Positions 28,623 to 54,581 of a stretch of DNA of 64,000 nucleotides are shown here, one piece after another; the first letter of the stretch is position 1; each line of letters starts with the position of its first letter. The position numbers and the translations under genes were made by a program. The notes under the pieces are model-generated. The model had not been told where the DNA came from and searched no databases. It was given only the letters and a program-made list of their open reading frames with translations. Source of the stretch: Tomocerus qinae. Lineage: Eukaryota > Arthropoda > Collembola > Entomobryomorpha > Tomoceridae. The DNA lies in the NCBI GenBank assembly GCA_020055645.1, contig CM034547.1, positions 14,106,513-14,170,512 of the forward strand, written 5' to 3'.

Positions 28623-31600
28623 ATGGTTATTGAACAAAAGTTCAAAGCCGGCGAGGAACCGGATCCATCTCAATATCTTTTTGTGTCAATGGAAACTAAA
28701 CGGCAAGATCAAACGAAACCCTACGATGCAAAAAAGACGTGCTGGGTTCCCGACAAGGAAGAAGGGTTCGCTCAAGGCATGATTAGCGCCACAAAGGGAG
28801 ATATCATTATGGTCACTGTTAATGGAGAGGTAATAAATTGAACTAATAAATTAAAATCTTTATATCACCAAAAAGAATCTTGTTTCAAGTTCTATACAGT
28901 TTAAAACTTCTGCTTAGTTAAAAGATTATAATTTTACATTGAAAATGTAATATTCCAGGACAAGCCATTCAAAAAGGATCAAGTGGGTCAAGTTAATCCC
29001 CCAAAATATGAAAAAACCGAGGATATGTCCAACTTGACTTTCCTGAACGACGCTTCTGTGCTTTACAATCTCAAGCAACGTTATTACAATCAGTTGATCT
29101 ATGTAAGTAGAATATTGGTGGATAAATAATATTGTGGATGCAGAGTATCAATAATCAATTTAGAGTTTTCGGTAAGAAAGCTATGTAAAAATGTGAAAGT
29201 TTGTTTTCACAGTACGGTACATTAGCAAATGGTGCATGTACATAACCCTGCTTGTAATTAAAGCAGGGATATATACATGTAGTGACTTTTTAAAAGTACA
29301 TGTTTTGCGTAATTTAAAAAATGTCTACAGGCTGCTCTTTCTCCGACGAATAATTAGCACTCAGGCAGATTTATCAAAGTATTATATTAACTTCCATCCA
29401 CATTGTAGTTTGCATTTTTGTCAGAAATAATACTTTGTGGAACTAATAGGGCCTAGTACTTCATTTCCATGTTTATTGCTGTTAACAAAAACTCAGAATT
29501 TGTGACTTTAATTACATTTGTTCACTCGCAATATAGTTTTGGTATGTAAATTGCAATAATTTTCTTGAAGATGCCCTTTTTTGCCCTACAATTAGAGTAT
29601 ATTTAGCAAGGGTGGTATATACCGTATAGACAAATGCTCTTCGACAAAGCTAACTCGGAAGCTAGAGAAATACATGGTTTTGGTGTAGCAATCTTGCTTC
29701 ACGGTGCTGAAATGTAATATGAGATTTGAAGAGTGTTCATATACCGTTCAATGTTTCTATATTTTCTTGTCTCTATTTTTGGTTTATTTACATTTCCATG
29801 TATTCTCTGCTTCAGCAGCCATTTGCTCTCTTTAGCTATTTTTAAACTGGCTCATCAAGGAAAGACATACAATTCTACGGTGTATAAATAACCAAATGCT
29901 GGATCAGTAGAAGAACATCACCTTACTGTCTGCGTTTACTGCAGCAAATCACAAACTTAAAATGTCTTTCAATAATACATATTTTGTCGATACATCTCTC
30001 CACTTCCACTTTCTTCCCCTGTTCCAATTTTTTAGTACGTATCGTAGTAGTAATGTATATAAAACAACGCTGTAACCAAAAATACTGAATTGATATTGAT
30101 ACTTTGATGATAGCTTTCTTCTATGACGCTAATGTAAAATGCAAATTCATTATTATGAATGTTTTAACGCACTATTAGTTGGTACTTAATATGAATATAT
30201 ATTTTTTTAGACCTACTCAGGATTGTTTTGTATCGCTATCAATCCTTACAAGCGTTTCCCCATTTACACACAAAGAGCAATGAAAATTTACAACAACAAA
30301 AGACGAAATGAATGCCCACCTCATATTTTTGCCATTGCAGAGGGTGCTTATGCTGACATGTTGACCAGTAAGTATTAAATGCTTTACAATGATACAAAGC
30401 ATCTAACAGTTACAATGCAATACAAGTTAAAACCACTTTTTACAATTTTGTTGCTTGGCTTGTTTAATGATACTTCTGAGGTAGGGGATAAAATTATAAA
30501 ATGAATTTTTATGTAATTTCTCTTTAAAAAGCAAAAGGTTTAAAAGTACAAGCCATGAAGAGAAAGTAAATTAAAGTTAATCTTTGTGAATTAAATCATA
30601 GTTAAAATGAACACGTAAAAATTGTTTAAGTGTTGCCTACTCGGTATAGTAGTTGGGCGGACATACTGATAACTTATTACTTACAATGTTTAATTTTGAT
30701 GTTCAGTATTTATGCATGAAAAATAACGACTAGAATTCTTGGCACTCACAATGAGTGCAGTTATAATATACTTAGGTACCTATATTTGTCATAAAACCAA
30801 AATTTATGGACTTGATGAGTTATGTGGCGTTCTTAAATGACTCCGGTTGTGAACCATTATTTTTGTTTAATTTCAGATCATGAAAATCAGTCCATTCTCA
30901 TTACGTAAGTGTCAAACTTAGATACAATAAATTCTTAAGCTGTTATGACATCAACAAAATTATTTAGTGTATGCAAAGCATTTATCTAACCCACGTTTGT
31001 ATTACGCAGTGGTGAGTCTGGTGCCGGAAAAACTGAAAACACAAAGAAAGTCATTGCGTACTTTGCCACTGTTGGTGCTTCCGGAAAACCTGGAGATGAG
31101 AAAAAGGTTTGTTACAATCTCGTTTATATATTTCATGCATACGTTTACCTTCCTAATCGTTTATGTGTAATAAGATACTCTGAACACTAACTAATTACCA
31201 ATTTTTTGCCTTTGGCCATCAGGTCTCTCTTGAGGATCAAATTGTCCAGACTAACCCTGTACTGGAAGCTTTTGGAAATGCCAAGACCACTCGTAATGAC
31301 AACTCTTCTCGATTTGTAAGGATCCTCAATCGCTTACTTATAAGTCCCAATGATTGTCAGTTATGATGGTATTTTTTCATTTAGGGTAAATTCATTCGTA
31401 TTTTCTTTGGTCCAACTGGAAAATTGGCTGGTGCTGATATCGAAACTTGTAAGTAATATACATCTTTTAAGTGCATAAAAGATTTATTAATCTTAACTTA
31501 ATCTTAAATATGATACTAATTTCAAGAAAAGAATTATAATAATTAATGAACTTTCCAAGTTAATTAATAGTAATTATACTATCAGTATATCAAATTTTCA

Positions 31601-34600
31601 TATATCTTAGATCTATTGGAAAAAGCCCGTGTGATCTCTCAACAACCTTTGGAACGTTCTTATCATATCTTCTACCAAATGAATACTGGAAAGGTCCCCG
31701 GGCTCAAAGGTATTTGGTTTGTACCGTCGTACATATTTATTTATTTTTTCTAATTCAAAAATCGATTGACTTTTCAAGTTAGTAATTATCCCTTTTATCC
31801 AAATTTACACCATTTAAAAGTAGCCCTTAAAGAGTACCCCTACATTACCCAATGAAGCTTACCCTTATAAAAGGAAGTCGTTCTGCAACTTAAAAAATTA
31901 GATTCATTACTATAATACATAGTACAATTAATATATTTTTCTTTTAAGGGGACAATAATGATTACTTGGTATTATAACTTTTTAGACAATTGATTAGGTT
32001 GTAGAACGGCTTTCAAAATCTTTATCTTGGTGTTTCACCCATTTTTCCCATGAGATTTTACTTTACAACAATATACTCCACTACTACTGTATACTGGCAT
32101 GAAAATATTTCAACCCCTTGTTTGGAAACCTTTACTTTACATTTTTCCCTGTACTTTACATACGGAAATGTGATTTGATTAAAATGTCCCTTTTATATTG
32201 CTAGTTTGAGAAATATTTTCTTATTTGCCATTTTTACCTAAATTAGATGCGTAATAAGGCGTGGGCTACGATTTAGTAATTTACTTCCAAAGAAATCTTC
32301 AGATGAGGAAGCAGGTACAGGTAGTTGGTGTAATTCGACAGATAGTCCCATCCCAATTTTTTTGAGGCACTTTTCATAGTGCTTTGGTTCTATGAACAAC
32401 TTTAGACATGTGTTTGCTGAGTGACAACATTATGGACTATTACTTCGTGTCGCAAGGAAAACTTACAGTACCAAGTATCGACGATGCTGAGGAGTTGGTG
32501 ATGACTCATGTGCGTAAGATCGACTCTCAATCAAATCGTATCCGAGTCCAGTCAATTGTTTTTACTCAAAGAACGTTCATGGTTGAAATAATCAATGTAG
32601 AAAGCTACAAAGCAAAATTGCTGTTTCTGTTTAATCAACTCATGCATCCAGCAAGCCATTTCATTGCTAATTTAGAATGTCATGCTTTATGGTATGAATA
32701 TACACATGAACGAATATTGTCTGCTGTCTGTTATATATATATGTATTTTGAATTGAAGCTATTATATACAAAATTTTATATTTTTATGCATCCCCCGAGT
32801 AAAATATATTGTACTACTTAATTAATAGAAATTGTAGAGATAATCTTATAAGCTAGAACAAATTAGGCCATAAACTACTAAACTGCTACTGCAACTGCAT
32901 CACGATGTGAAAATTTCAAAATCCAGTAAGGTTTGTTCAGGTTGCTAATTCAATGTAGTTTGTTTCAATTTTTAAATCGCTGAATTTTGATCGCATGTTT
33001 TAATTAAGGCATGCCCCCTGTTTGCGCTTGTTGTGATTTAATTGTTGCCCTTATCTGTACTTAATCATTAATAAAATTGTATAATTGTATAATTCGGAAT
33101 GCATAATTAAATGTAATTCTTCTGCAGGTTTTGTCATTTATTTAACGATTTATCTATAATTCAATTTTGTTAATGATCACTCTACAGGAAGCTTTCGAAA
33201 TTCTGAAGTTTACAGCCCAGGAGAGAGATGATATTTACAAGATTACAGCTGCTGTAATGCACTTAGGATCCATGAAGTTCAAGCAACAAGGTCGTGAAGA
33301 ACAGGCCCAACCCGACGGATTAGACGTAAGTTTGCGAATATTGTAAACTTTTAGCCAGACATCATTGATTGGTTAATGAAAGTCCATTTTATTGTACAAT
33401 AAATATTGTTCGTTGTTTTTCAGGAAGGTACGAGAGTTGGAAAATTGTTGGGAGTTGACGGAGAGCAACTGTACAACAATTTCGCTAAGCCAAAGATAAA
33501 GGTCGGAACTGAGTTTGTCACCAAGGGCCAGAATGTCAACCAAGTTAGTTTTATTATACAATAATATTGTTATACACATTTAATGTACTTTAAGGAAGAT
33601 AAGTACTAATTTTTTACTTTCGGTAATTGTAGTGCTCTTATTCAATTGGTGCTATGGCCAAGGCAACTTTTGACAGGCTTTTCCTCTTCATCGTAAAGAA
33701 GTGTAACGAGACATTGGACACAAAACAAAAGCGTTCTTCCTTTGCTGGTGTATTGGATATCGCCGGTTTTGAAATTTTTGACGTAATAAGAATATAATTC
33801 AATATTGCAAGAATTTCCATATACAATTACTAGTATATTTGAATCCACAAATTGTCTTATTACTTTGTGCAGTATAATGGTTTCGAGCAGTTGTGCATCA
33901 ACTTTACCAACGAGAAACTCCAGCAGTTCTTCAATCATCACATGTTCGTTCTTGAGCAGGAAGAGTACAAAAAAGAAGGTCTTGATTGGATCTTTGAGGA
34001 TTTCGGTATGGATTTGCAAGCTTGTATTGAACTCATGGAAAAGGTAAACAATCTACTATCTACAATGTTCATAAATTTTGCAATAATGAGGCGTAACTAA
34101 AGGTACAAAAATATTTTAGCCTATGGGTATTTTCTCCATTCTGGAAGAAGAGTCTATGTTCCCTAAAGCCACAGATCAAACATTCATCGATAAGTTGAGG
34201 GCTAACTGCTTGGGAAAATCAGCTAACTTCATCAAGCCTAAACCACCAAAGCCTGGCTGTCAAGAGGCTCACTTTGCTTGTGTTCATTATGCTGGAATCG
34301 TAAGCAATTCTTCAATTTGGCTAGCAGCAAATAGAATTTTTAACAATGCTTTATCTTTGTTCATTCATTAATTCAATATAGGTACCTTACAGCATTACAT
34401 CATGGCTGGAGAAAAATAAGGATCCTTTGAATGACACTGTGGTTGATCAGTTCAAAAAGGGTTCCAACGCTTTAATGGTTGAAATTTATGCAAACCATCC
34501 GGGACAATCCGCACCGGCCGATCAAGCAAAAGGTAATTAGACACTGTTTGATTTTTGGTATATGCAATGATGAAGAATTTACCATATTGCTGTTGAATTT

Positions 34601-37600
34601 ATTGAGATACGACATTGTTATTGTTACTCCATATAGCATTCTCACCAATTCCCCAAAGAAATTATTATACGTATCCAGTTTACGAACCTAGCTATAAGTA
34701 ATGTACCTGCAGTTAGAATTTCCTCGTAACTTTTGAAATGTACGGACTTGCACGGAATGTTTTAGTAACACAATTTTGTACAACTTTTAACTCTACAGGA
34801 GGAAAGCAGAAGGGTGGCGGCTTCAGGACAGTTTCTTCCTCTTACAGGGTTAATTAAATTCTAGTCTCGTTGTTGATTTTTGAGAGTGTTTATTTGTCCC
34901 TTTGTCATTAGTTGTTATAGTTGAGAAATGTAGTCTTCCAGTTTGTCTGCATATAATAGCTAATGTAATATTGAGTCGCTTGAAAGCACTCAATTGTAAA
35001 TTACTTCTGAATCCTAGTGAAAGGAGGATGATACTGATGTGTTAGTTTGTGTGTTCCTTTACGCCTCAACTGTAAAATGCTATGAATTTCCTGTGTGTCC
35101 CCTTACTTTGTATTGTACATAATAATCCGATGCCGATGAACAGAGCAGTCCCATATACATCAATTTGGACTTGCTATTGACCATTGTGTTCTGTTTATGT
35201 GTGCTATGACGGTAATAGTATTTTATTACCTGATTGAGCTTGTGTCATTAGATTCCCGATGTTCCCTTACGCAAGTTTGAAATGAAGGTCTATTACATCA
35301 TAAATTGCACCAGTTGCAATTGCTGCATCACATAAAATATATCTGTAGACACAATTACTATTTATAAACGATTAGTAATGGTATGTTCAAGTGACAACAA
35401 TAACCATCAGTATTTCTTACATGTGATGGTTGGTGCATCTTATAGAGTAGAAGATTGTTATTGCATGAAACAACCAGGACAAGAAAGTCATGGAAAGTCT
35501 GCAGTATGATGTTGGGATTAAAATAGTGTTTCCAATTTCAAGATGTAATCTAAAATACTCTATTAAACAATACAGGAGCAGCTTAACAGCTTGATGACCA
35601 CTTTGAAAGCGACACATCCTCATTTCATTCGTTGCATTATTCCGAATGAAGTAAAGACTCCAGGTCTGCAAAAGAATTTACTGTTCAAAATATTGCGGAA
35701 TCGAAATTTTTGTTCGTGATGATAAATTAATTGTTTATACTTACAGGTTTGATTGATTCTGGTTTGGTTATGCATCAGCTCACATGTAATGGTGTGCTGG
35801 AAGGTATCCGTATTTGCCGAAAGGGTTTCCCTAACCGAATGTACTATCCGGACTTTAAACACAGGTAACAAATTATATGGATATATTGTTCTCATAAAAT
35901 GCGTACCTTTGGATGAGTTTGTTGCAGAAGTTTTCTTACTCTTTAAAAATGTAACCTGTTTTTCTGTTGGTATAAAGATATTCCATATTGGCATCCAAAG
36001 AAATGGCTGCACAGAAGGAGGATAAGAAAATGGCAACTGCTTGTTTTGATACCATTGGACTACATGCTGACAAATGGAGAGTTGGTCATACAAAGGTATA
36101 ATAATTACTTACTAATACTAAACATAACCCAATTTTCAATGATTTTGCGATGTAATTTTGGAAAAAGAAAAGAAATTAACTTTAGCAGATACGATAACTT
36201 ACCTGTAATTAATCCTAGGTGTTTTTCCGTGCTGGTGTTCTCGGAGAGTTGGAAGAAATCCGTGATGACAAGCTTGCGAAAATCATTACATGGCTCCAAG
36301 CCACTGTACGCAGTTTCCTCGTCAGAAAAGTTTACAAAACTTTGTCGGATCAACGGTAATTTATTAAGACGTATTTTTCTACCATTCTCACGCGGTGTTT
36401 CTAGAAAATCACCACACACCACTTTCTCTTCCTTTACGCTAACTGACTCAGTATAAACGTTTCACCAAACTTTCACCTGTGCTTTCACTAAAGTTGAAGC
36501 AAAAGCTTGACATGGTTAATGTGTATATAGTTGACGTAAGGAAAGAAAGTAACGAAATAGTTCTTTAGAAACAAACTGAATATTAATTTATTTTTGTAAA
36601 TTATATGATCTTTGTTTCAAAAATTATAAAAGCCATTCAAAGTTAAATATTAATTATTGATGATTTCTTTGTAATAGTTTGGCTTTAGAAGTTGTGCAAC
36701 GTACTATAAGACGATTTATGCGATTGAGAACATGGCCATGGTGGCATTTGTGGAAAATTATCAAACCAACACTCAATGTCACCAGAGTGGAAGATGAGAT
36801 CAAGGTTGGTTCTATTCTATAGTATTCACACAGAATTAGAATTTTAACATAGGTAATAATTGTAATCAAATTGCGATTTTCTTAGAAATATGAAGATCGT
36901 ATTGGCAGTGCTAAAGAAATCTTGGCAAAAGAAGAAACTGCAAGAAAGCTGGCTGATGCTGAAAACAAGAAACTGACCAAAGCTGTGGACGAACTCAGAG
37001 ATGAACTGGAGTCGTCTAAACATGGAGCAGGGACTATGACTGACAAGCTGAACAAGCTTAACAATGCCAAGACCGAACTTCAAAATTCAATTTCTGTAAG
37101 AATGATCAAACGCAATTATCTTCATTGATACTCTCTTTGAAATTAACATGAAAAATCTATTCCTTAGGATCTAGAAACTCGTCTGTCTCAAGAAGAGGAT
37201 GCCCGCCACCAATTGACACAACAAACAAAGAAGTTACAAGCCGAGCAGAATGGTGTGAAAAAAGACTTAGAAGATTTAGCTGCCCGAATCCTAGCTACTG
37301 AGGGTGACACTGCATCTAAAGAACTCCTCATTCGAAACCTCAACGATGAAATCGCTCAACAGGAGGAACTCATCAACAAACTTACCAAAGAAAAGAAAGC
37401 CATCCAAGAAATGAATCAAAAATCAGCGGAAGATTCACAAGTATTGTTTTTTTTAATTCTTTATCCCATAATTTTGGAAAGGGAAAAATAGTTTCGAAAT
37501 ATTAGCGACGAAATTTAAAATGAGAAACAAAGTATGATCATAATTGTATAAAATTATAATAAATGTCATGTTTTAGTCCCAAGAAGACAAAGTCAACCAT

Positions 37601-40600
37601 CTGAACAAAGTAAAGGCCAAATTGGAACGATCTCTTGATGAACTAGAAGATTCTCTGGAAAGAGAAAAGAAACTCCGTGGTGATCTCGAAAAGACCAAGA
37701 GGAAGGTCGAGGGTGACCTTAAACTCAGTCAAGAAGCAGTAGCTGATCTTGAACGCAATAAGAAGGAACTCGAACAAACTATCCAGAGAAAAGACAAGGA
37801 AATTTCATCACTCAGTGCTAAATTGGAAGATGAATGCTCTCTTATTGCTAAACTCCAAAGGCAAATTAAGGAACTTCAGGTACAACAATAAAGTAGCTTC
37901 ACTTTTGCGAGGTGGTCTATAGCAGTTACTTACACTTTATTATTATTATTAATTTCTAGGCTCGCATTGAAGAATTGGATGAAGAATTGGAAGCTGAGCG
38001 TCAAGCTCGAGCCAAGGCAGAGAAACAAAGAGCCGACCTTGCGCGTGAATTGGAAGAACTTGGTGCTCGGTTGGAAGAAGCTGGAGGTATGACTTCTGGT
38101 CAAATCGAGTTGAACAAGAAACGTGAAGCAGAGTTGGCCAAACTTCGTCGTGAGAACGAAGAAGCAAACATTCAACATGAGGCGTCGATGGCTGGAATTC
38201 GTAAACGACACAACGACGCAGTTGCTGAAATGGCTGAACAAATCGACAATCTCAACAAAATGAAAGCCAAGTAAGTCAAGCCTTATACTTAATGTTTACA
38301 TTACAAAAAACGTCAGAGGAAACTATATTTTATCATTTTTAAAGGGCTGAGAAAGAGCGTTCTCAAATTTCCACTGAATTGAATGATGTTCGGGCTTCTA
38401 TGGATCAAATGGCCAATGACAAGGCTGGTCAAGAAAAGTTGGGCAAGCATTTGCAACACCACCTGTCTGAGCTTCAAGCTAAATATGACGAAGTTAGCCG
38501 GACAATTGGAGATTTGGATCAAAGCAAGAAGAAACTGGCTATTGACAACTCTGACATGACACGGCAGTTGGAAGAAGCCGAATCTCAAGTGTCCCAATTG
38601 AACAAGTTGAAGGTTTCTTTGGCCACCCAATTAGAAGATACAAAGAGAATGGCCGATGAAGAGGCTCGTGAGCGTGCTACTTTATTGGGCAAGTTCCGAA
38701 ATGTTGAACATGATCTGGACCTCCTCCGTGAACAACTCGACGAAGAAGCTGAAGGAAAAAGTGAAATTCAAAAGCAAATCTCCAGAGCAAATGCGGAAGC
38801 TCAACTGTGGCGTGCAAAATATGAGTCCGAAGGTGTTGCAAGGACTGAAGAGCTGGAAGAAGCCAAGTAAGTTATCGGTCACGTCTTTAGAGATTTTCGA
38901 TTTCAATCAGCTACATCTAAGAATCTATTTAAGCTAAAATAAAATAATCGAATGTTACTATTTTTAGGCGTAAATTGATTGCTCGCCTAACGGAAGCTGA
39001 AGAAACAATTGAATCTCTCAATCAAAAGTCAATTGCATTAGAAAAGACACGCCAGAGATTGACAACTCAATTGGAGGATATGCACACGGAAGTAGATCGG
39101 TCCAGAGCTCTTGTTGCACAGATGGAGAAGAAACAACAATACTTTGATAAAATCCTTGCTGAGTGGAAGAACAAGGTGAATGATTTATCCGCGGAATTAG
39201 ATGCTTCCCAACGGGATTGCAGAAACTACGCAACTGAAGTGTTCAGAACTAAAGCTGTGTATGAAGAAAATCAAGAGCGATTGGATCAAACGAAACGGGA
39301 GAACAAAAACCTGGCCGATGAGATCAAAGATCTTGTTGATCAAATTAGTGAAGGTGGTCGCAATATTCATGAGATTGAGAAGGCCCGTAACAGACTTCAA
39401 ATTGAGAAAGAAGAACTTCAAGCAGCTTTGGAAGAAGCAGAGGGTGCTCTTGAACAAGAGGAGAACAAGGTCTTGAGAGTACAACTCGAATTATCCCAAG
39501 TGCGACAGGAGATCGACAGAAGGTAATCTATTGTAAAGCAATGATGCCAGTGAAAATATTACTGAGAATTTTTTCCATTTTGACAGAATCCAAGAGAAAG
39601 AAGAAGAATTTGAAAATACTCGAAAGAACCACCAACGTGCCCTTGATTCCATGCAAGCCAGCTTGGAAGCTGAGAGCAACGGAAAGTCAGAAGCCCTCCG
39701 AATGAAAAAGAAGTTAGAAGCTGACATTAACGAACTGGAAATTGCCTTGGATCATTCTAACAAGGCCAATGCAGAAGCACAAAAGAGCATCAAAAAGTAC
39801 CTGCAACAATTAAAAGAAAGTACACAACAGCTTGAGGAAGAACAACAGGCTCGAGAGGAGACAAGGGAACAGGTAGGAATTGCCGAAAGACGAGCCAATG
39901 CCCTTTCAAACGAACTTGAAGAATCTAGAACCCTGTTTGAACAAGCTGACCGTGCCCGTCGTCAAGCAGAACAAGAATTATTCGATGCCCGTGATGCCCT
40001 TACTGAACTTACAAATCAAACAGGACTTCTTGCCGGTGCTAAGAGGAAGCTTGAAGGAGAACTTCAAGCTCTTCACGTGAGATTTCAATTTTATATATTA
40101 GTGAGACTGTCAAATTCCGAGTACAATATTAATTTTTTTCAAATGTTTAGTCTGATTTGGAGGAGATTTTGAATGAAGCTAAGAATTCCGAAGAAAAAGC
40201 CAAGAAAGCCATGGTTGATGCCGCCCGCCTTGCCGATGAACTCCGAGCTGAGCAAGAACACGCTCAGAACCAAGAGAGAGCCCGCAAAGGAATGGAAGTC
40301 CAAATCAAAGAACTCCAAGGCCGCCTCGAAGAAGCCGAACAAAATATCCTTAAGGGCGGAAAGAAAGCCATTGCTAAACTAGAAGACAAACTCAGAGCCC
40401 TTGAACAAGAATTAGATGGAGAACAAAGACGACACGCAGATGCCCAAAAGAACCTTCGTAAAGGAGACCGACGTGTCAAGGAGTTGAGCTTCCAAGCCGA
40501 GGAAGACCGCAAAAACCACGGAAAAATGCAAGACCTGGTTGATAAACTTTTGCAGAAGATCAAGACTTACAAGAGACAAATTGAAGAAGCTGTAATTAGA

Positions 40601-40944
40601 ATAAATATTTGAGATGAATTATTAACTTATGTTTCATGAAATGGGGATTCATGGTATTTTAATTTCATTTTAATTACAGGAGGAAATTGCTGCACTTAAT
40701 TTGGCTAAATTCCGCAAGGCACAACAAGAACTGGAGGAGGCCGATGAACGATCTGAAATGGCAGAGCAGGCATTGAGCAAAGTTCGAGCAAAGGGACGGG
40801 GTGGTTCTGCAATTCGAGGAGCCAGTCCATTAATGGTAGGCAAAAAGACTTTTGGTGGACAGTAAGTAGGCTACACAATTCATACTTATTTTAACATTTT
40901 TTCTTTTGTAGAACAAGCCAAAGAAGCAACTCCAGCTTGAATAA
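28623..40944 (+). CDS. Mhc: Muscle myosin II heavy chain, copy 1, about 1944 residues
   Basis: Coding exons: 28623-28829, 28959-29102, 30211-30367, 30877-30904, 31010-31106, 31223-31315, 31385-31448, 31611-31709, 32406-32509, 33188-33325, 33424-33543, 33633-33782, 33873-34043, 34120-34299, 34382-34532, 34799-34848, 35576-35663, 35747-35864, 35978-36095, 36219-36355, 36678-36804, 36886-37095, 37168-37440, 37577-37879, 37960-38270, 38345-38866, 38968-39522, 39587-40076, 40151-40591, 40680-40835, 40912-40944. The phases join throughout. This is the thick-filament motor of striated muscle. Seen: SH3-like N-terminus; P-loop GESGAGKT (180-187); switch I NDNSSRF (to 242); switch II DIAGFE (about 459-464); loop 2 with [11 protein letters not shown]1/SH2 helix [12 protein letters not shown]; converter; IQ region; coiled-coil rod from about 850 to 1920. 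The length is close to insect Mhc (about 1960). No duplicated alternative exons were found in any intron. The tail has a second possible donor (see findings). Confidence 0.95.
40836..40865 (+). other. Possible alternative C-terminal coding extension of Mhc copy 1
   Basis: The penultimate coding exon has a donor at 40836 (GTAGGC) that gives the tailpiece ending [10 protein letters not shown], aligned with copy 2. If that donor is skipped, the frame stays open for nine more codons (VGKKTFGGQ) before TAA at 40863-40865. A stronger donor (GTAAGT) at 40862 overlaps the end of this extension. Alternative tail exons are known in Drosophila Mhc, so this is plausible, but only transcripts can show use. 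Confidence 0.35.
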
Positions 40945-40971
40945 ATTACACCATGTATTAACGTAAGTTTT

Positions 40972-40977
40972 AATAAA
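40972..40977 (+). terminator. Polyadenylation signal of Mhc copy 1
   Basis: AATAAA lies 28 bases after the stop codon of the main Mhc copy 1 frame. A GTAAGT just before it (40963-40968) and an acceptor-like CAG around 41037 leave open an extra 3' exon. Confidence 0.5.
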
Positions 40978-43125: not shown

Positions 43126-43157
43126 TATATAAGAATCTTTAAAAGGTGTAGTCATTT
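43126..43157 (+). promoter_or_regulatory. TATA box plus initiator of Mhc copy 2
   Basis: TATATAA at 43126-43132 stands 28 bases upstream of the A (43154) in TCATTT (43152-43157), which fits the arthropod initiator TCAKTY. This is the normal TATA-to-start spacing. The resulting first exon is 34 bases long, exactly as in Mhc copy 1. Confidence 0.75.
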
Positions 43158-43746
43158 CCGTTCTTCGGTGCAGAACAGCTTTCGACCGTAAGTCCAACTT
43201 GCAATTTTTACGTTAAGAGCAGTTTTTTAAAAATTCAATTCAAGTTTACATGTGTTTTTGTGAATAAAAATGTGCATTGGCTAAATAACAGTTACATAAC
43301 ACTTTGGGGAATTTTGAAACGAATTGGCCACAGTCGTGGGAGTATTTTTGGCAGTTTCATCAATTTTTTTCTATACATATCTAAGTAAAAATTATATGAG
43401 CACGATAACCTGACCAAATCTTCAGAAAGTCAAAGAATTTGTGGTTTAATTATTTTCCTAAACTTCCAAAAGCGATTTTATATTTTCTATGCTGTCATGC
43501 AGCTAAGCTGTTTTGATTATTTACAAAAAGGGATCACATTAACATAGATTGCACAGTTTAAGAGGGTAGAAATCAAGATTCCTTACATTTCATTACGAAA
43601 TATTCATTATTGTCTAAGTCAAATTTTTTTGTGTTTTTACTATAGGAAAGTTCAAGGGCTGTTCATTCAGGCTTTCGTCTTCCGTCCGTTCCCGTAAAAA
43701 TCACTCCTAATTTTTGCTAGTTTTGTCCAACAACTAGCAATCCAAC
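43154..43746 (+). other. 5' UTR of Mhc copy 2: noncoding exon 1, intron, leader of exon 2
   Basis: Exon 1 is 43154-43187 and the donor GTAAGT follows. The intron is 43188-43645 (458 bases, against 466 in copy 1). Exon 2 starts at 43646 with GAAAGTTCAAGGGCTG, close to copy 1, and gives a 101-base leader before the ATG at 43747. Confidence 0.75.
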
Positions 43747-46700
43747 ATGGTTATTGAACAAAAATTCAAAGCGGGCGAGGAGCCCGACCCAACCGAGTAC
43801 TTGTTCATCTCAATGGAGATGAAAAGACAAGACTCCACCAAGCCTTATGATGCCAAAACAGCTTGCTGGGTCCCTGATGCTGAGGAGGGTTTCGTGCTTG
43901 GTATCATCAAAGGCACCAAAGGAGATATCGTTCAAGTCCAAGTTCCATCCGGAGATGTATGAATTCATGTTTTCATCAATAAATAAATTGAACGTCATGA
44001 AATGTAAAAATTGAATAATATTATCTTTTCTGTAGGAGAAACCATTTAAAAAGAACTTGGTGGACCAAGTCAATCCGCCTAAATACGAAAAAGCTGAAGA
44101 CATGTCCAACTTGACTTTCTTGAATGATGCGTCTGTACTCCACAATTTGAAACAACGTTACTACGCTAAATTGATCTATGTAAGTTAAAAAATGTTGAAG
44201 TACCAAAGGTAGAAGCTATAGAATAATGCTAAATGTGCTTTCTAAACACAAAAATGAATTATTTGTCAATCTACTTTTACTTTTTGGGTAAATTTTTTTA
44301 TCGATGATGATTGTTTGTAAACAACAGAATCGACATAGAGAATAATTACACTATTTGAGGCAAATTAAGTGAGACTGATAAGAAAATAATGGGCAGGTTT
44401 TTAAAATATAATTAATTTGAGGGCCAAGTACCTATAGCTATGTGGAACTACGAGGGCTGATAAAAAATATATGGTTAGGGTATAACGTGGTTAATAAAGA
44501 GATAAAACTAAATTCCTTCGATGACAACATAAGTAGGTTATGAATACGAAATATATTTTTAGAGCTGCCATTTAAAGTTGGGTTGGTACTTTGATAGCTA
44601 TTGTATTACCTATTACCTCATCTTAGTCTTGAGCTTCTTTTATTTTGCATGAAGGTAATATAGACACAAGGAAAGAGTAGGATTATATGTGCCGTGAGAT
44701 ATTAAAACTTAAGACAAGACAAGTCTATTCTTCTTGAATGTAGAAACGATCTCGAGGGAGCTGGAGACTGGAGCTCATTCTATTTTTATTTTCTAATCTT
44801 TGCTGCAACAGCAAGAGACAGATATTATTGGGATAATAAATGAGGTGCAGATGCAAAAGACATCGTAATGTTTTATAGTCCTAGCATAGATATTAACAAA
44901 AAGTCATTTGTTGCAGTATTTCCATGTACTACTGATACTGCACTGATTATGCTTTGATACTCGTGTATTATTATTTAGTTTAGACGAATAATTACTGAAA
45001 ATGTTTACGAATTTAATTTCTAGACGTACTCCGGTCTTTTCTGTATCGCTATCAATCCCTACAAGCGGTACCCGATTTACACGCAGCGAGCTATGAAAAT
45101 TTACAACGGAAAGAGGCGTAATGAAGTCCCGCCTCATATTTTTGCTATTGCTGAAGGTGCCTACCAAAGTATGATCCAAGGTGAGTGTTGGACGAGACCG
45201 TGGATTTGGTTTTAGGTGACCCTACATTGAAAATGTCTAAAAGCCTGGAACAACTTGGCCAGATATATTTTGTTCCTTATATAGAGAATATCGAGATCAG
45301 TTGTATCTTTAAATACCTTTCCTATTACATGCATACAATTACAAACTTGTAGGCAAACGAACTGAGTAAGAAGAAGTGTAGGAAATGGTACAGAAGAAAC
45401 TTAGCTTACCTTATTTAGGTATGTCGCATGAAATCCTTCCCAAAATAACTCAAGAAGTCCTCGCCCTGAAATTGGCGACTACACTATTCTCTTCTTCTTT
45501 GGCATTTTGCCTTGATACTTCTACTATATACAGATATAAGTGAGACAATTAAATCATAGACAAGAATTCGGCCCCCGCACTTTAAGAGATGCTTTCTATA
45601 ACAAATATGTAGGTATAGTCACCGTAGTGCACGTAACAAATTAAGGCTGCCATTGCAATTACAATTCTATTTTAAACCAACTAAACGTATATGCTACATG
45701 CTACAATGACTACAAAGATAATCGGCTGCTGTAACACTATTTTATGAATGAACAAACACGATAATATAGAAAATCTATAGTGCTATCAACTACTAAGAGA
45801 AAATAACTAGACTATCAAATATGACATTTTATACACATTATTTTTAAATAGATTTACTAACACATGTAGTATCTACTTATATAAGAACTTATCCTTACTG
45901 ACTTTAGAAATGATATTTAACTCTCTTTTCCGCTTTTACATTTTTATAGTGATTTAACTTTAATACTGTAGAAATTACTTACTTTTAACTGAGAAACTAT
46001 TAACTTCTATGGCTGGAACTATTATTTTCTTTATTTATTTATTTAGCTTAAAGGCTGTGGGAAGGCTGGATTTGAAAGGCTGAAAAAGGCTGGAAAATAA
46101 ATCATATTTTTTAATATAATATTATATATAACCAAATTATATACAATACTCATTAATATATGATTGTAATAATATGATGTCGTATTTTCAGATCACGAGA
46201 ACCAATCTATCTTGATCACGTAAGAGTCTTTGCATTTTTTAAATCCACAATTTAATTCCAGTCCAATATCGGCGGACGTTACAGACACAAATAAAATATA
46301 CGAGACTTGAGGAATTGTCACTTGTTTTGGTTTTTCATACTTGTTTGCAATTTTTTAATATACAAAATTGCTTTATATAACATTAATTTATAATATTACA
46401 AACATAGAGGGGAGTCTGGGGCTGGAAAGACTGAGAACACGAAGAAAGTTATTGCTTACTTCGCCTCTGTCGGTGCTTCTGGAAAACCTGGAGATGAGAA
46501 AAAGGTAAAAAAAATTAACAAAATTGTCATCTGAAGTACAATTTAGCAAATTATGCTTAGAAAAGGAAAATCAAATAATTTTACCTTGATATTCGTACAC
46601 TTAAACATTTTTCAATACCAATCCATAGATCTCCCTTGAGGATCAAATTGTACAAACAAATCCTGTACTTGAGTCTTTCGGTAACGCTAAAACAACGCGT

Positions 46701-49700
46701 AATGACAACTCTTCTCGATTCGTAAGTAGATTTTTTCTGCAAATAAAATGATTTTAAGATATTTGTAAAGGGTCTGAACTGAAGTTCTAATTTTACAATG
46801 AATATTATGGCTTATAGGGTAAATTCATCCGTATCCATTTCGGTCCCACTGGTAAATTGGCTGGTGCTGATATTGAGAACTGTAAGATTTTTATACATCT
46901 AAACCGGTCACATGTCTTGTACAAAAGAAAATAAATGTAAATATTTTTATGCACACCAGACCTACTGGAGAAAGCTCGTGTCATATCTCAGATGCCTCTG
47001 GAACGTTGCTATCATATCTTCTATCAATTGATGTCTGCTGCGTCTGTTAAGGCTGGAGTTAAGCGTAAGTTTTCTTACTTTTAGCGATCACATTGAATAA
47101 TTCTTATGCTGGGGTATCATCGATAAAGTGAAATTTTATGTTCAGAAATGTGCCTTTTGGGAGATGACATATATTTCTACCACTATGTGTCCCAGGGAAA
47201 AATTACGATCCCCGGAATTGATGATGCTGAGGAGTTCGATGCTACTCATGTACGTTACAAAAATGATATTGCCTTTATTGAAGAATAGCGGCCATTTCTT
47301 TCTAAATCGATTTTCTGTAGGGATTTATATTCATAAGTAATACATTGTTGTATTTCCAGACTGCTTTTGAGATCTTGAACTTCTCAGAACAAGAGCGATC
47401 TGATATCTACAAAATAACAGCCACTGTAATGCACATGGGAGAAATGAAATTCAAACAACAGGGTCGTGATGAACAAGCTGATCCAGCTGAAAATGATGAG
47501 GGTGATGCCGTCGGTAAACTTTTGGGTATAAGCGGTGAGGAAATGTACAGAAATGTATGCAAACCAAGAATCAAGGTCGGAACTGAGTTTGTCACCAAAG
47601 GCATGTCTGTCAACATGGTGAGATATTTCATAGTGAAAATTTAATTATTGTAGATGCGTTCCATTTTGTTTAATACTATTATTCTGAAATGGTCACTTAT
47701 AATTTTCAACAGTGTAACTATACGATGGGTGCGATGGCCAAGTCTATTTTTGATCGGCTCTTCAAGTTCTTAGTCAAGAAGTGTAACGATACTTTGGACA
47801 CCCAGCAAAAACGAGCCTCATTCGCTGGTGTGCTTGATATTGCCGGTTTCGAGATCTTTGATGTAAATAAATTGTATCTTATTTGTCTTTAGTATATAAT
47901 GTATAATATTATACAATAAAAGTTTTTGCATTTTTAAATGTTTAGGAAAATGGCTTCGATCAGTTGTGCATCAACTTCACTAACGAAAAGCTCCAACAGT
48001 TCTTTAACCACCACATGTTCGTACTTGAGCAGGAAGAGTACAAGAAAGAAGGTCTTGATTGGATCTTTGAGGATTTCGGTATGGATTTGCAAGCTTGTAT
48101 TGAGCTTTTCGAAAAGGTGATATTTTCTTTTGTTAAAAATTAAAAATAGCATTTTTCGAAACTCTAAATATGGAAGGTCGGAAAATACAATTTGTGTATT
48201 GTTATTCATGTATAGCCTATGGGTATCTTCTCCATCCTTGAGGAAGAGTCTATGTTCCCCAAAGCAACTGATGCCACATTTGCGGAAAAGTTGAAGAACA
48301 ATCATTTGGGGAAGACAGCTTGCTTCCTTAAGCCCAAGCCACCAAAGCCGGGATTTAAAGAAGGTCATTTTGCAGTCGCCCATTACGCCGGCACAGTAAG
48401 AATTCCTCATAAACCTACATATACCTATTTTGTTAGTAATTTACTTAAAGAATCTTGTATTTTAGGTGACTTATAATATCACTGGTTGGCTGGAGAAAAA
48501 TAAGGATCCCTTAAATGACACTGTTGTCGATCAATATAAAAAGGGTACCAACCAACTGGTTCTTGTTCTGTATGCTGATCATCCTGGTCAATCTGCTCCT
48601 GCTGATGCTGGTGGCGGCGGCAAGGGTAAGATGATGGGACTCTTTTTGTTGATGATAACAAAAATTATTATCCCTACACGATTTTATGGATCAGTGATAA
48701 ACATTTTGATTTTATTTGGAGAGAAAGACCGCAAAGTTTTTGGTGGCAACGCAATAATAGTTGTAATGTAAAAAGCTGTAGATGTGCACGAAGTACAACA
48801 TGTACTGAAATTGTCTCGTCTTCACAAGTTCTAACACTGTCCATGTCTTTAGTTACATGGAATGCCGAAACTAAACAGAAAAACAACTTACTGCTACATA
48901 AAATAATCATTTGCATGATTGTTACATTACAACTGACATAAATGCAGATGCAGATTGTAGTCTGGTTTTTGAACATAATGTACAGTCTGAGTCTGATTTA
49001 ATGTAAAACAAAGATGTTCGTAGATATTTGTCTTAAGGTACAATTTTACAAATCCAACAGGTGGAAAGAAGAAGGGTGGTGGCTTTGCAACTGTATCTTC
49101 CGGTTACAGGGTTAATAAAAAATGAAAATATATTTGAAGTGCCCCTTTATTCTTTACCCAGTTTTCATTTTAATCTTGACCCCGATTTGAACTTTGAACC
49201 TTTCTGTGTATAAATTTTGTTGAAATCTTTACCAACAGGAAGTCTACTTTTCTATCCCTTGTGAACCCCTCAAAGGGAATCTCTGATTCATTTCTCCCAA
49301 GAGTGTTTGTGACTGTGATCCCTCCCCTCGAGTTTATAGACCAAAACCACCTGAAATTCTGTCGCAACTGGTAGAATGTCTTATAATGTAGCCCTAAAAC
49401 CACCCACATTGAAATCTCAACAGAAGAAACTGTATTTAGCCCTATACTTGTAAATAGATCATTACCTACTAATTCTAACCATCAAAACTATTTTATGTGT
49501 GCACTTTTCCCATGAAATAACCATTGGCTTCTTTGAAATCTCACAGGCTGTTGTTTTTGGTTTTGAAATGTGAATTTTTGGCACAAATTAATATTTCTGT
49601 TGAAATATATATCTTTCAGGAGCAACTTGGAAGCTTGATGACCACGTTAAAAGCTACGCATCCTCATTTCATTCGTTGCATCATCCCCAACGAAGTCAAG

Positions 49701-52700
49701 ACTCCAGGTTTGAATAAATACTTCACAACATTTATGAATTGTATTCTTAATTCAATTTTCATTGGATTTACTTCATTATTTCTCCATTTCCTCAGGTCTT
49801 ATTGATTCTGGCTTGGTTATGCATCAGCTTACCTGTAATGGTGTGCTTGAGGGTATCCGTATTTGCCGTAAGGGATTCCCCAACAGAATGGCCTATCCTG
49901 ACTTTGCTCATCGGTATAAATATATTTGTCTCCTAAACTTTGTAATGACCATGTCGGCAGATATCGTAAACTTTCTTCTTTTACGTAGATACCAAGTATT
50001 GGCATCGAAGGAAATGGCTGAAGAAAAGGAAGACAAGAAAATGGCCACAGCATGCTTCAATCACATCGGTCTTAGTCCTGACAAATATCGTGTCGGCCAC
50101 ACCAAAGTATTCTTCCGTGCTGGTGTCCTCGGAGAGATGGAAGAAATCCGTGACGACAAACTATCAAAGATTATTGCATGGATGCAGTCTGCTATTCGAG
50201 GATTTAACACTCGAAAGGACTACAAGAGGCTTAAGGATCAGCGGTAAATACTCTTGTTATTTTGGCAAATCTTCTATCAAATTAATTTTTGTGTGGATAA
50301 AATGCACATAATTTTTTTTGATAGTCACGCTTTGGAAGTTGTTCAACGCACATTGAAGAGCTACATGAGATTGAGATGCTGGCCATGGTGGACATTGTGG
50401 AAGGTTATCAAACCTACACTGAATGTGACTCGAGTCGAGGATGAAATCAAGGTATTGTTATTGGCACTTTGGACACAGCTACTATTTCGTCATTCAGAGT
50501 ACTAAAGTTATTTCTTAACTGATAGAAATACGAAGACCGTATTTCTAAGGCCGACGAAATCTTGGCTAAAGAAGAAAAAGCCCGTGCTGACTTGGAGAAA
50601 GAAAATAAGCGACTGATAAAAGCGCGCAATGAACTTCAGGCTGAAATCGACGACGAGAGAGCCGGTGCAGGAGGAATCACAGAAAAATTGGCTAGACTGA
50701 ACAACACAAAGTCTGAGCTTCAAGTTCAACTTGTCGTAAGAATTATAATATAATATGGTTTGTTTCTTTGGTATAGGTAATCTACATTTAATGCTACTAT
50801 ATTATAATATTTCTTCTAATCCAAGGATTTGGAGACTCGATTGTCTCAAGAGGAAGATGCTCGTCATCAACTTACTCAACAGACAAAGAAGCTGCAGGTC
50901 GAGCATGCGACCGTTAAGAAGGAATTGGCGGATGTAGCTGCACGAATCCAAGCCACCCAGGGAGATACTGGATCGAAAGAACTACTTATTCGCAACTTGC
51001 AAGATGAAATCGCTCAACAAGAAGAGCTCATTTCTAAGTTGAATAAAGAAAAGAAAGCAATTCAAGAACAAAATCAAAAGACATCTGAGGACTCACAGGT
51101 TTTTGTTACATAAATAATTAAACGGTGAAATATGGTTTTAAAATGTATAAGATTTTATTGCATTTTATGAATTTTAGTCCCAAGAAGACAAAGTGAACCA
51201 CTTAAACAAAGTTAAGTCTAAGTTGGAACGCTCTCTTGACGAATTGGAGGATTCCTTGGAACGTGAGAAGAAGCTCCGCGGCGATATCGAGAAGACGAAG
51301 AGGAAGGTGGAGGGCGACCTCAAGTTGAGCCAAGAGGCTGTCGCTGACCTGGAACGCAACAAGAAAGAATTAGAACAGACCATTCAACGCAAGGACAAAG
51401 AGATCTCTTCCCTCAGTGCTAAGCTCGAGGAAGAGCAATCTCTTATCTCCAAACTTTCAAAGCAGATCAAGGAGCTCCAGGTAAAATAAAATGTAGCATG
51501 CAGGCTTTGAATTAAATTAACTATTTAAAAAAAACATTTTAAGAAATAGAATTTCAAACTTTCTATTACCTTGGCGGTATAGGCTCGTATTGAGGAGTTG
51601 GATGAAGAACTTGAATCAGAACGGCAGTCTCGTTCCAAGGCCGAGAAGCAACGTGCTGATCTTGCTCGTGAACTGGAAGAATTAGGTGCCCGGTTGGAGG
51701 AAGCTGGAGGAGCTACATCTGGCCAAATCGAACTGAACAAGAAGCGAGAAGCTGAGTTGGCCAAGCTCCGGCGAGAAGTTGAAGAAGCTAATATTCAGCA
51801 TGAAGCTGCAATGGCCAACATCCGCAAGAAACACAATGACGCTGTTGCTGAGATGGCTGAGCAAATTGACAACTTGAACAAAACCAAAGCCAAGTGAGTA
51901 TTTCTGAATGCAAATGAGTTTTACAGTATATTGCACCATTTCCTAACTAAAGTCGTTGAATTTTTCAGGGCCGAGAAGGATCGTGCTCAAATCGCTACTG
52001 AGTTGGGTGACGTCCGGGCAGCTTTGGACCATTTGGCCAATGACAAGGCTGGCCAAGAGAAGTTAGGAAAGCATTTGCAACACCATCTGTCCGAACTCCA
52101 AGCCAAATACGATGAAGTCACTCGCACTATCGGAGATGTTGATCAGACCAAGAAGAAGCTGACAATTGACAACTCTGATATGGGCCGCCAATTGGAGGAA
52201 GCCGAATCTCATTTGTCCCAATTGAATAAATTGAAGGTATCCTTAGCCACCCAGTTAGAAGACACGAAAAGAATGGCCGATGAAGAGGCTCGTGAGCGTG
52301 CTACTTTGTTGGGCAAATTCCGCAATGTTGAGCATGATTTGGACGTTCTCCGTGAGCAACTTGACGAGGAAGCTGAAGGAAAAAGCGAAATTCAAAGACA
52401 AATTTCCCGTGCTAACGCTGAATCCCAATTGTGGCGTGCCAAGTACGAATCCGAGGGAGTTGCAAGAACTGAAGAGCTGGAGGAAGCGAAGTATGAAACA
52501 TATTTTGTTTCCATTTAGTTCTAATTGTAAGCTTGAATTGGTATCTAAAATAGTATGTTTTCAATTTGCTAAGGCGCAAGTTGCAGGCTCGGCTGGGAGA
52601 AGCTGAAGAAACAATTGAATCTCTGAACCAAAAATCCATTGCCCTTGAAAAGACGAAGCAGCGATTGACCACTCAATTAGAAGACCAACATGCCGAAGTC

Positions 52701-54581
52701 GACCGGTCTCGTGCCCTTGTTATACAAATGGAGAAGAAGCAACTATACTTTGATAAAATCCTGGCTGAATGGAAGAACAAAGTGAACGACCTCTCCGCTG
52801 AGTTGGATGCCTCCCAACGCGAAGCCCGTAATTATGCCACCGAAGTATTCCGCACCAAAGCCACCTACGAAGAGAACCAAGAACGGTTAGACTCTACTCG
52901 TCGGGAGAACAAGAACCTTGCTGATGAAATCAAGGATCTCGTTGACCAAATAGGTGAGGGTGGCCGTAATGTCCATGAAATCGAAAAGGCCCGCAATCGC
53001 CTCCAGATTGAGAAGGAGGAACTTCAGGCTGCTTTGGAAGAAGCCGAAGCTGCTCTGGAACAGGAGGAGAACAAAGTCCTTAGAGTACAATTGGAGCTTT
53101 CCCAAGTCAGACAAGAGATCGACCGCAGGTAAACGTAGTTTCAGTGGAAATTCATGATTTATTGTATTTAAAAAGTATTTATTTTAAATCTTGCGTATTT
53201 TATTTTCTTCAAGAATCCAAGAAAAGGAAGAAGAGTTTGAAAATACCCGCAAAAACCACCAACGTGCCCTTGATTCCATGCAAGCCAGTTTGGAAGCCGA
53301 GAGCAATGGAAAGTCTGAGGCCCTTCGGATGAAGAAGAAGTTGGAGTCTGATATCAATGAACTGGAAATTGCTTTGGATCATTCTAATAAGGCTAACGCC
53401 GAAGCCCAGAAGAGCATCAAAAGATATCTCCAGCAATTGAAAGAGAGCACGCAACTTCTGGAAGAAGAACAAAGAGCCCGAGAAGAAACCCGAGAACAAG
53501 TTGGAATTGCTGAAAGACGAGCCAATGCACTTTCCAATGAACTCGAAGAATCCCGAACCCTCCTCGAACAAGCCGACCGTGCCCGACGACAAGCCGAGCA
53601 GGAGCTTACCGATGCCCGCGATGCCCTTAACGAACTCTCCAACGCAACCGGACTCCTTGCTGGGGCCAAGAGGAAGCTCGAAGGCGAACTTCAAGCCCTC
53701 CACGTAAAGAATTTTTAACAAAAGTAATTTACTAGATCTAAAATTTAAAATAGCTAACCAAAGCAATTTTAATTTTCAGGCCGATCTTGAAGAGATTTTG
53801 AATGAAGCTAAAAATTCCGAAGAAAAAGCCAAGAAAGCTATGGTTGATGCCGCTCGCCTTGCCGATGAACTCCGAGCTGAACAAGAACACGCCCAGAACC
53901 AAGAAAGATCCCGCAAAGGAATGGAAGTCCAAATCAAAGAACTCCAAAGTCGCCTCGAAGAAGCCGAACAAAATATCCTTAAGGGAGGTAAGAAGGCCAT
54001 TGCCAAATTGGAAGAGAAAGTCCGAGGAATCGAACAGGAACTGGATGGGGAACAAAGAAGACACGCCGAAGCCCAGAAGAACGTTCGTAAAGGGGAGAGA
54101 CGTGTCAAGGAACTCAGTTTCCAAGCCGAGGAAGACCGTAAAAACCACGAGAAGATGCAAGACCTGGTTGATAAATTGCAGCAAAAGATCAAGACTTACA
54201 AGAGACAGATTGAGGAAGCCGTATGTTTATTATGACTTTTGAGTTATACCTTCTTAATAAACATTTTTTAAAAATTGAAATTGAAATGAAATTCCACAGG
54301 AGGAAATTGCTGCCTTGAACTTGGCTAAATTCCGCAAGGCTCAACAAGAGCTGGAAGAAGCTGATGAACGGTCAGAAGCTGCTGAACAAGCATTGAGCAA
54401 GGTTCGCGCCAAGGGACGGGCTGGATCCGCTGCTCGCGCTCTGAGCCCTGTGGTAATTATACTGTTGCAAATATATTCATATACGATTGTAAAATTAGTC
54501 TCTAATGGCTGGATATTTTTTTTTATTTTATCATTGCAGTCTGCTAAGCCAAAGAGAGCCCCCGTCGCTGCCCTTGAATAA
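43747..54581 (+). CDS. Mhc: Muscle myosin II heavy chain, copy 2, about 1952 residues
   Basis: Coding exons: 43747-43956, 44036-44179, 45024-45180, 46192-46219, 46408-46504, 46629-46721, 46818-46881, 46960-47064, 47146-47249, 47360-47617, 47713-47862, 47946-48116, 48216-48395, 48466-48625, 49061-49110, 49620-49707, 49796-49913, 49989-50243, 50325-50451, 50526-50735, 50826-51098, 51178-51480, 51583-51893, 51969-52490, 52574-53128, 53214-53703, 53780-54220, 54300-54452, 54540-54581. The frame is continuous. Same architecture as copy 1: P-loop GESGAGKT (181-188), [27 protein letters not shown] region and rod. Two introns of copy 1 are missing here, so exons 47360-47617 and 49989-50243 each correspond to two copy 1 exons with identical total length. 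Loop 2 is longer and glycine-rich ([14 protein letters not shown]). The residues around 308-340 and the converter differ from copy 1. The C-terminus ends [13 protein letters not shown]. No alternative exons were found. Confidence 0.96.

What the first reader, a model, noticed from the sequence alone, without database searches (positions are those of the whole stretch)
28623..54581. Tandem muscle myosin genes without insect-style alternative exons
Two complete Mhc genes lie head to tail about 2.8 kb apart. Insects usually make muscle diversity from one Mhc gene by mutually exclusive exons (N-terminal, residues about 300-330, relay, converter, hinge). I looked in every long intron of both copies (for example 29103-30210, 31710-32405, 32510-33187, 34849-35575, 44180-45023, 45181-46191) and saw no second version of any exon. 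The paralogues differ most at the sites insects vary: the segment before MCLL, the converter ([14 protein letters not shown] against [14 protein letters not shown]) and the tailpiece. Duplication may replace splicing here.
Basis: partly seen in the sequence, partly recalled or inferred. Interest (0 to 1): 0.8.

Follow-up and report, generated by a model that had tools for sequence, protein, structure and literature searches.

The report
Muscle myosin paralogues without alternative exons
Two neighbouring muscle-myosin genes in this arthropod show no alternative exons, but the same genome still holds two other muscle-myosin genes that do, so gene copies seem to supplement splicing here rather than replace it.

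Summary
Observation confirmed: the window holds two complete, intact muscle Mhc genes head to tail (W1 28623-40865, W2 43747-54581) with no duplicate exon found in any intron. The scan that reveals 10 extra exons in sister genes A and B reveals none here.

Five muscle Mhc genes were found: W1, W2, a third gene without duplicate exons (C, C1:62.2 Mb), and a second tandem pair A and B (C1:104.8 Mb). A has classical exon clusters (1, 2, 7, 8, 10; 72 predicted motors); B has two (5, 10; 6 motors). So duplication coexists with splicing. W1 and W2 are not sister copies: W2 pairs with C. The claim that W1 and W2 differ most at insect-variable sites is not supported (permutation p = 0.81).

Best reading: an Mhc family private to this lineage (perhaps a springtail; the species is recalled, not shown), some members of which kept one variant of each exon under low dN/dS; W1 and W2 have a leader motif of their own. 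Mosquitoes, mites and copepods give precedents: a new member of a known kind. The nested pattern A(5) > B(2) > W1/W2/C(0) in one genome is the most interesting part; expression and muscle specialisation are inference.

The parts
28623..40865 (+). Mhc paralogue W1, 30 coding exons modelled to 40838, open to a stop at 40863-40865; a spliced C-terminus is also possible (GTAAGT near 40860)
   Evidence: 29 GT-AG introns, no stop; muscle myosin II by PDB comparison of a tail exon
43747..54581 (+). Mhc paralogue W2, 28 exons modelled to 54458 plus a last exon read by eye ([13 protein letters not shown])
   Evidence: 27 GT-AG introns, no stop; PDB comparison of a tail exon
27976..27989 (+). W1: conserved end of a probable non-coding first exon (AACAGCTTTCGACC), followed by donor GTAAG
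   Evidence: the 19-mer occurs 4 times in the genome (up to 1 mismatch allowed, all 4 exact), upstream of A, B, W1 and W2; 0 for the reversed control; exon role inferred
43174..43187 (+). W2: conserved end of the same probable first exon
   Evidence: exon role inferred
28456..28508 (+). W1: probable second leader exon (acceptor TTTTAG, then GAAAGCTC...), similar in A and B; a 25-base part also in W2 (43643-43667)
   Evidence: exon role inferred from conservation
28959..29102 (+). W1 exon 2 (cluster-1 position), single, EDMSNLT type as in the Drosophila K chain
44036..44179 (+). W2 exon 2 (cluster-1 position), single, EDMSNLT type
32406..32509 (+). W1 exon 9 (cluster-5 position), single; 63% identical to W2, the most divergent motor exon
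47146..47249 (+). W2 exon 9 (cluster-5 position), single
33873..34043 (+). W1 relay exon (cluster-7 position), single; WIFEDFG, where gene A and five PDB arthropod chains have I, L or M in place of the E
47946..48116 (+). W2 relay exon (cluster-7 position), single; WIFEDFG
34799..34848 (+). W1 loop-2 exon (cluster-8 position), single
49061..49110 (+). W2 loop-2 exon (cluster-8 position), single
35978..36095 (+). W1 converter exon (cluster-10 position), single, GHTK type, GT donor
   Evidence: the 6 converter exons of A and B have GC donors
49989..50243 (+). W2 converter exon fused to the next exon (intron at query position 766 absent, as in C)

Best explanation
W1 and W2 are functional-looking muscle myosin II heavy-chain genes of a family of five. 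Shown: gene A keeps five clusters of duplicated in-frame exons at positions known from arthropod Mhc genes, gene B keeps two, and W1, W2 and C show one version of every exon. Shown: in the motor tree the five genes stand together against Drosophila, Lethocerus and tarantula chains; with the root on the tarantula side, A branches first. Inferred: the copies arose by DNA duplication within this lineage, and on the way to W1, W2 and C the surplus exons were lost and one set was fixed (EDMSNLT-type exon 2, GHTK-type converter); in W2 and C the converter exon fused with the next one. Inferred: W1 and W2 have their own promoter and leader exon, so this motor is chosen by transcribing the gene, while A and B still choose by splicing.
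For: Five muscle Mhc loci: tail exon, 32 of 32 candidates scored: five loci at 85-100%, the rest 46% or less over part, or 33%; relay exon, 21 of 21 scored: seven exons at 88-100% = A x3, B, W1, W2, C; next 77%. Alternates: A exons 2, 5, 13, 16, 19 (2, 2, 3, 2, 3 versions), B exons 9 and 18 (2, 3). Motor tree: five-gene split 99/98, {B,W1,W2,C} 100/100, {W2,C} 100/100; the first two hold without the MXE-type exons. Two introns are missing only in W2 and C. dN/dS 0.05 for W2-C, 0.045 for W1-W2 with dS near saturation. Leader 19-mer only upstream of A, B, W1 and W2.
Against: No expression data: transcription, leader-exon use and splicing of A and B are predictions. Only three reference species were in the trees, none a crustacean or another wingless hexapod, so 'within this lineage' is loose. 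The place of W1 is soft: B+W1 is not rejected (p-AU 0.111), and without the MXE-type exons B, W1 and (W2,C) form an open fork. The tail does not place B (A+B 62/51; B+W1+W2+C p-AU 0.16). C lacks the leader motif, so the own-promoter argument covers W1 and W2 only. Whether B's exon-9 pair is ancestral was not tested properly.
Confidence: 0.8

Rival explanations
1. Strict replacement: this animal gave up Mhc splicing and makes muscle diversity by gene copies alone, like copepods.
For: W1, W2 and C show no duplicate exons; five Mhc genes. The salmon louse has 17 Mhc genes without MXEs (PMC3912159).
Against: Genes A and B have 7 and 3 extra in-frame exons with splice sites at known cluster positions.
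Confidence: 0.04
2. W1, W2 and C are copies without function, for example 'partially' processed pseudogenes, the origin that Odronitz and Kollmar preferred for mosquito Mhc3/Mhc4.
For: One variant per cluster with introns kept is the pattern described there (PMC2257972).
Against: No stop in 1935 (W1), 1941 (W2) and 1926 (C) modelled codons; all introns GT-AG; dN/dS about 0.05; leader motif kept in W1 and W2. An origin through a partly spliced RNA is not excluded, but shared sequence upstream of the coding exons, with a splice donor, speaks for DNA duplication of W1 and W2.
Confidence: 0.05
3. W1 and W2 have internal alternative exons that are too diverged or too short to be seen.
For: Exon 4 (8 whole codons) cannot be tested and the 16-aa loop-2 exon loses power at 40% identity.
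Against: No hit above null with queries from all five genes; 13 of 13 exon tests at 100% (rounded) power at 50% identity. Even A's most diverged converter alternate (48% to A1) was found at 96 against 7.
Confidence: 0.06

Closest known systems
Aedes Mhc3 and Culex Mhc3/Mhc4 (Odronitz and Kollmar 2008, PMC2257972; abstract, part 1 of Results, part 1 of Discussion and passages seen)
   Same: Extra muscle Mhc genes beside an MXE-bearing Mhc1, same exon organisation, one variant per cluster; in Culex an alternative exon is fused to the next exon.
   Different: There the extra proteins are 84-91% identical to Mhc1; here W1, W2 and C are 75-78% identical to A, and an intermediate gene with two clusters (B) exists. 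Aedes Mhc3 keeps a GC donor after its converter exon; W1 has GT.
Metaseiulus occidentalis Mhc1, 3, 4, 5 (Kollmar and Hatje 2014, PMC3912159; section seen)
   Same: Several Mhc genes, tandem array, different numbers of MXE clusters in one genome.
   Different: There three of four genes keep MXEs, and the array is called most probably recent; here W1 and W2 are old (dS near saturation) and not sisters.
Copepod Mhc families (Lepeophtheirus, 17 genes without MXEs; PMC3912159, section seen)
   Same: Expansion of muscle Mhc genes without MXEs.
   Different: Those copepod genes have no MXE cluster at all; this genome keeps gene A with five.
Pediculus Mhc1 (PMC2257972; passage seen)
   Same: Converter exon fused to the next exon, cluster lost, as in W2 and C.
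   Different: A single Mhc gene that keeps four other clusters.

Membership tests
Muscle myosin II heavy chain (Mhc1-like) | Motor plus long coiled-coil tail closest to striated-muscle myosin | tested here: met
   A W1 tail exon scores 216-241 bits against Drosophila, Lethocerus and tarantula muscle chains, 46-50 against smooth/nonmuscle chains; a W2 tail exon has the same top three; motors:
Muscle myosin II heavy chain (Mhc1-like) | Intron positions conserved with arthropod Mhc genes | tested here: inconclusive
   Of 30 intron positions in the five genes 25 are in all five; published insect positions were not aligned here
Insect-type Mhc with mutually exclusive exons | At least one cluster of duplicated in-frame exons | tested here: not met
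   W1, W2 and C: none found. Met by gene A (5 clusters) and gene B (2)
Mosquito Mhc3/Mhc4-like MXE-free paralogue | An MXE-bearing Mhc elsewhere in the same genome | tested here: met
   Genes A and B
Mosquito Mhc3/Mhc4-like MXE-free paralogue | Same exon organisation, one variant per cluster | tested here: met
   with two introns missing in W2 and C
Mosquito Mhc3/Mhc4-like MXE-free paralogue | Common descent with the mosquito genes | not tested
   Mosquito sequences were not held; the five genes stand apart from Drosophila, which suggests convergence
Processed pseudogene | Introns lost, frame broken or constraint relaxed | tested here: not met
   27-29 introns, no stop, dN/dS about 0.05
Recent tandem duplicate pair | The neighbours are each other's closest relatives | tested here: not met
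   W1+W2 rejected, p-AU 2e-8 motor, 0.011 tail

The most novel reading that the evidence does not exclude
One genome preserves a graded hand-over from splice choice to gene choice in the same protein: exon clusters fall from five (A) to two (B) to none (W1, W2, C) along a nested duplication series, and the converter exon moves from GC donors (A, B) to a GT donor (W1) or to fusion with the next exon (W2, C). The motors of B, W1, W2 and C share a relay-loop change (hydrophobic to Glu) and would serve a particular muscle, for example a springtail's jumping muscle, W1 and W2 being switched on through leader exons of their own.
Probability: 0.22. Interest if true: 0.6.

Novelty: new member of a known kind. 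Interest (0 to 1): 0.36.

Why it matters
How animals make different muscle motors, by splicing one gene or by keeping several, is mostly compared between distant species. Here both solutions and an intermediate sit in one genome, so the order of exon loss and a take-over by promoters could be tested in one animal. The genes without alternative exons follow published precedents.

Tried and rejected
Tail gene conversion between neighbours: W1 and W2 look closest in the distal tail (92% identity), but tail trees still pair W2 with C; the effect is a longer C branch. For A and B the tail cannot decide.

Segmental duplication of the neighbourhood: none of 350 ORFs (40 aa or more) in the window flanks matches any of 822 ORFs in nine pieces held around A, B and C at E 1e-6; only short stretches around those loci were held.

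Weak converter donors as the cause of mutual exclusion: GC donors follow 6 of 6 converter exons in A and B, but Aedes Mhc3, without MXEs, also keeps a GC donor, and some MXE-bearing insect genes have GT (PMC2257972).

Organism: COX1 copies, a PDB comparison and paper searches (passages) did not name it. The assembly size (334.44 Mb) and second contig (71.85 Mb) fit what I recall of the springtail Tomocerus qinae; two searches found no held paper with these numbers. NRPS genes fit a springtail but occur in other animals too (PMC10531068, passages).

Rows set aside: several peptides were out of frame (A1 and B1 converters; exon 9 of A, B2, C, W1, W2; loop 2 of A3, B, C, W1, W2). Converters were redone in frame; exon 9 and loop 2 were not. 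Short hits at null level (W1 37519, W2 43645, B 104813045, 104819421 and 104813240) were not counted as exons. The gene A and B scores (77-312) are self-matches, because the alternates were among the queries; the independent control is. The tail alignments were cut in the output and not used.
Full report
What is there. The window (G000:C2:14106513-14170512 of a 334,443,149-base, 115-contig assembly) holds two complete muscle myosin II heavy-chain genes on the + strand. W1 has 30 exons from 28623 to 40838 and stays open to a stop at 40863-40865; W2 has 28 exons from 43747 to 54458 and a last exon, read by eye, that ends in the stop at 54579-54581. There are no internal stops, and all 29 and 27 introns are GT-AG. 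PDB comparison of a tail exon of each puts them closest to Drosophila, Lethocerus and tarantula muscle myosin.

No alternative exons seen in W1 or W2. Each exon was slid without gaps over its own masked gene and flanks (1.1-1.7 kb for W1 and W2), with the reverse strand as null. Apart from two short null-level hits nothing stood out; in several exons the forward best exceeded the reverse best (W1 converter 17 against 4), but only at about 12% of the self-score or less. The same scan showed seven extra exons in gene A (scores 43-304, nulls 7-23) and three in gene B (133-162, nulls 9-10). Then 154 exon peptides of all five Mhc genes, alternates included, were aligned locally with gaps to the introns: best forward against best reverse W1 35/38, W2 39/43, C 41/41. 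Intron sums are 25,235 bases in A, 8,572 in B, 6,411, 4,889 and 5,360 in W1, W2 and C. In a power test copies mutated to 50% identity were seen in 100% (rounded) of 200 draws in 13 of 13 exon tests; at 40% so were all but the 16-residue loop-2 exon. W2's fused converter was not in that test, and a second exon 4 (8 whole codons) could not be seen.

The rest of the genome. Searches with the myosin head and tail families, a relay exon and a tail exon show five muscle Mhc loci: A (C1:104774057-104805093) and B (C1:104810943-104825313), head to tail about 5.8 kb apart; C (C1:62228198-62239335); W1; W2. A class II gene at C1:114.13 Mb matches less well (relay 77%, tail 33%) and is probably the nonmuscle one. 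Gene A has two versions of exon 2 (cluster 1), two of exon 5 (cluster 2, P-loop and loop 1), three of the relay exon 13 (cluster 7), two of exon 16 (cluster 8, loop 2) and three of the converter exon 19 (cluster 10); gene B has two of exon 9 (cluster 5) and three of the converter exon (borders of A's extra exons 5 and 16 read by eye, each one codon longer than its partner, in frame). Cluster numbers follow PMC3912159 (section 6); the assignment by protein region is mine. With free combination this is 72 predicted motors from A, 6 from B and one each from W1, W2 and C. A's upstream loop-2 alternate (KRAKGSAFQTVSALYR) resembles tarantula, and A's third converter has the GNTK ending of the Drosophila embryonic chain, so these choices look old. 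W1, W2, C and B have the EDMSNLT form of exon 2 and the GHTK form of the converter.

Descent. A motor tree with two Drosophila chains, Lethocerus and tarantula (taken) gives (A,(B,(W1,(W2,C)))) against the references: five-gene split 99/98, {B,W1,W2,C} 100/100, {W1,W2,C} 93/92, {W2,C} 100/100. The tree is unrooted; A branches first if the root lies among the references. A+B is rejected (p-AU 6e-10) and so is W1+W2 (2e-8); B+W1 is not (0.111). Leaving out the MXE-type exons keeps the five-gene split and {B,W1,W2,C} but opens the order of B, W1 and (W2,C). The tail (about 853-1578) again pairs W2 with C (99/98) and rejects W1+W2 (p 0.011) but does not place B. Of 30 intron positions 25 are in all five genes; two are missing only in W2 and C, one only in B, one is present only in W1, W2 and C, one only in C. 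So the two neighbours in the window are old and not a recent tandem pair. dN and dS are 0.077 and 1.54 for W2-C, 0.110 and 2.44 for W1-W2, the latter near saturation. The references are three species only, so how far the family reaches beyond this animal is open.

How it may work. Shown: the 19-base string AACAGCTTTCGACCGTAAG occurs four times in the genome, upstream of A, B, W1 and W2, none for the reversed control; a second conserved stretch behind an acceptor follows in W1, A and B and in part in W2. I read these as non-coding leader exons, so W1 and W2 would be separate transcription units; this is inference. Shown: six of six converter exons of A and B are followed by GC donors, W1's by GT, and W2 and C lack that intron. 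GC donors in this cluster are described for insects, with GT after the most 3' version, and fusion of the converter exon for Pediculus; but Aedes Mhc3, without alternatives, keeps GC, and some genes with alternatives have GT (PMC2257972, passages), so the donor is a correlate, not a cause. The likely course is loss of surplus exons and fixation of one set, after which transcription of the gene, not splicing, selects that motor. B, W1, W2 and C share WIFEDFG in the relay loop where A and five PDB arthropod chains have I, L or M in place of the E; the effect is untested.

Over 20 motor exons W1 and W2 differ at 16.2% of residues in the six MXE-type exons and 20.8% in the other fourteen (one-sided permutation p = 0.81; W2-C 0.95; W1-C 0.69). 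Exon 9 (63% identical) and the converter (77%) are divergent, but so are exons 1, 8, 10, 11, 14, 15 and 20 (68-75%); the relay and P-loop exons are among the most conserved. Outside the motor the first S2 exon is the most divergent (54%).

What is known. MXE-free extra Mhc genes beside an MXE gene are published for Aedes and Culex (PMC2257972: abstract, part 1 of Results, part 1 of Discussion, passages), a mixed family with a tandem array for a predatory mite and MXE-free families for copepods (PMC3912159: abstract and sections 6, 9, 10, 11, 13). The main text of PMC3912159 does not hold the words Collembola, springtail, Diplura or Entognatha. Searches for springtail or collembolan muscle myosin gave listings without a paper on the point (0 papers; 3; 3), nor did one for Mhc duplication and mutually exclusive exons in insects since 2014 beyond the 2014 survey (3). 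Of these listings one paper was opened besides that survey; its passages have nothing on springtail myosin (PMC7581897). All this covers the open-licence library only.

Organism. Not named by any tool. Assembly and contig sizes fit my recollection of the springtail Tomocerus qinae, and NRPS genes fit a springtail; this stays a lead. 'Insect' in the finding is therefore uncertain.

Verdict. A correct observation, an interpretation that the rest of the genome overturns, and a real but modest finding behind it: a graded Mhc family in one genome.

Noticed in passing
G000:C1:104774057-104825313 (L009-L014): A second tandem Mhc pair (A, B) with 7 and 3 extra in-frame exons; A has a cluster-2 duplicate, which PMC3912159 (2014) reports among insects only in Palaeoptera.
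   Followed up: yes
window 27976-27994 and 43174-43192: A 19-base string found only upstream of four Mhc genes in the assembly; probable end of a non-coding first exon with its donor. Gene C lacks it.
   Followed up: partly
window 33873-34043 and 47946-48116: Relay loop WIFEDFG in W1, W2, C and B; A and five PDB arthropod chains have I, L or M in place of the E.
   Followed up: partly
L029, L030; G000:C1 near 39-60 Mb and at 108.4 Mb: Nonribosomal peptide synthetase genes with open frames of 1602-2456 aa inside a 140-Mb contig of an animal genome.
   Followed up: partly
L027, L028; G000:C1:36670928-36672268 and C1:139.1-139.8 Mb: Cytochrome oxidase I copies inside a large contig, one matching all 436 profile positions with TGA as the only in-frame stop codon: nuclear copies of mitochondrial DNA or assembly joins.
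   Followed up: no
window 18728-21748, 55906-56448, 60748-61323 (-): Neighbouring genes: leucine-rich repeat protein(s), a cytochrome P450 piece, a thiopurine methyltransferase-like gene.
   Followed up: partly
window 40779-41000: W1 has two possible C-termini: read-through (GKKTFGGQ*) or splicing at GTAAGT to a further short exon.
   Followed up: no
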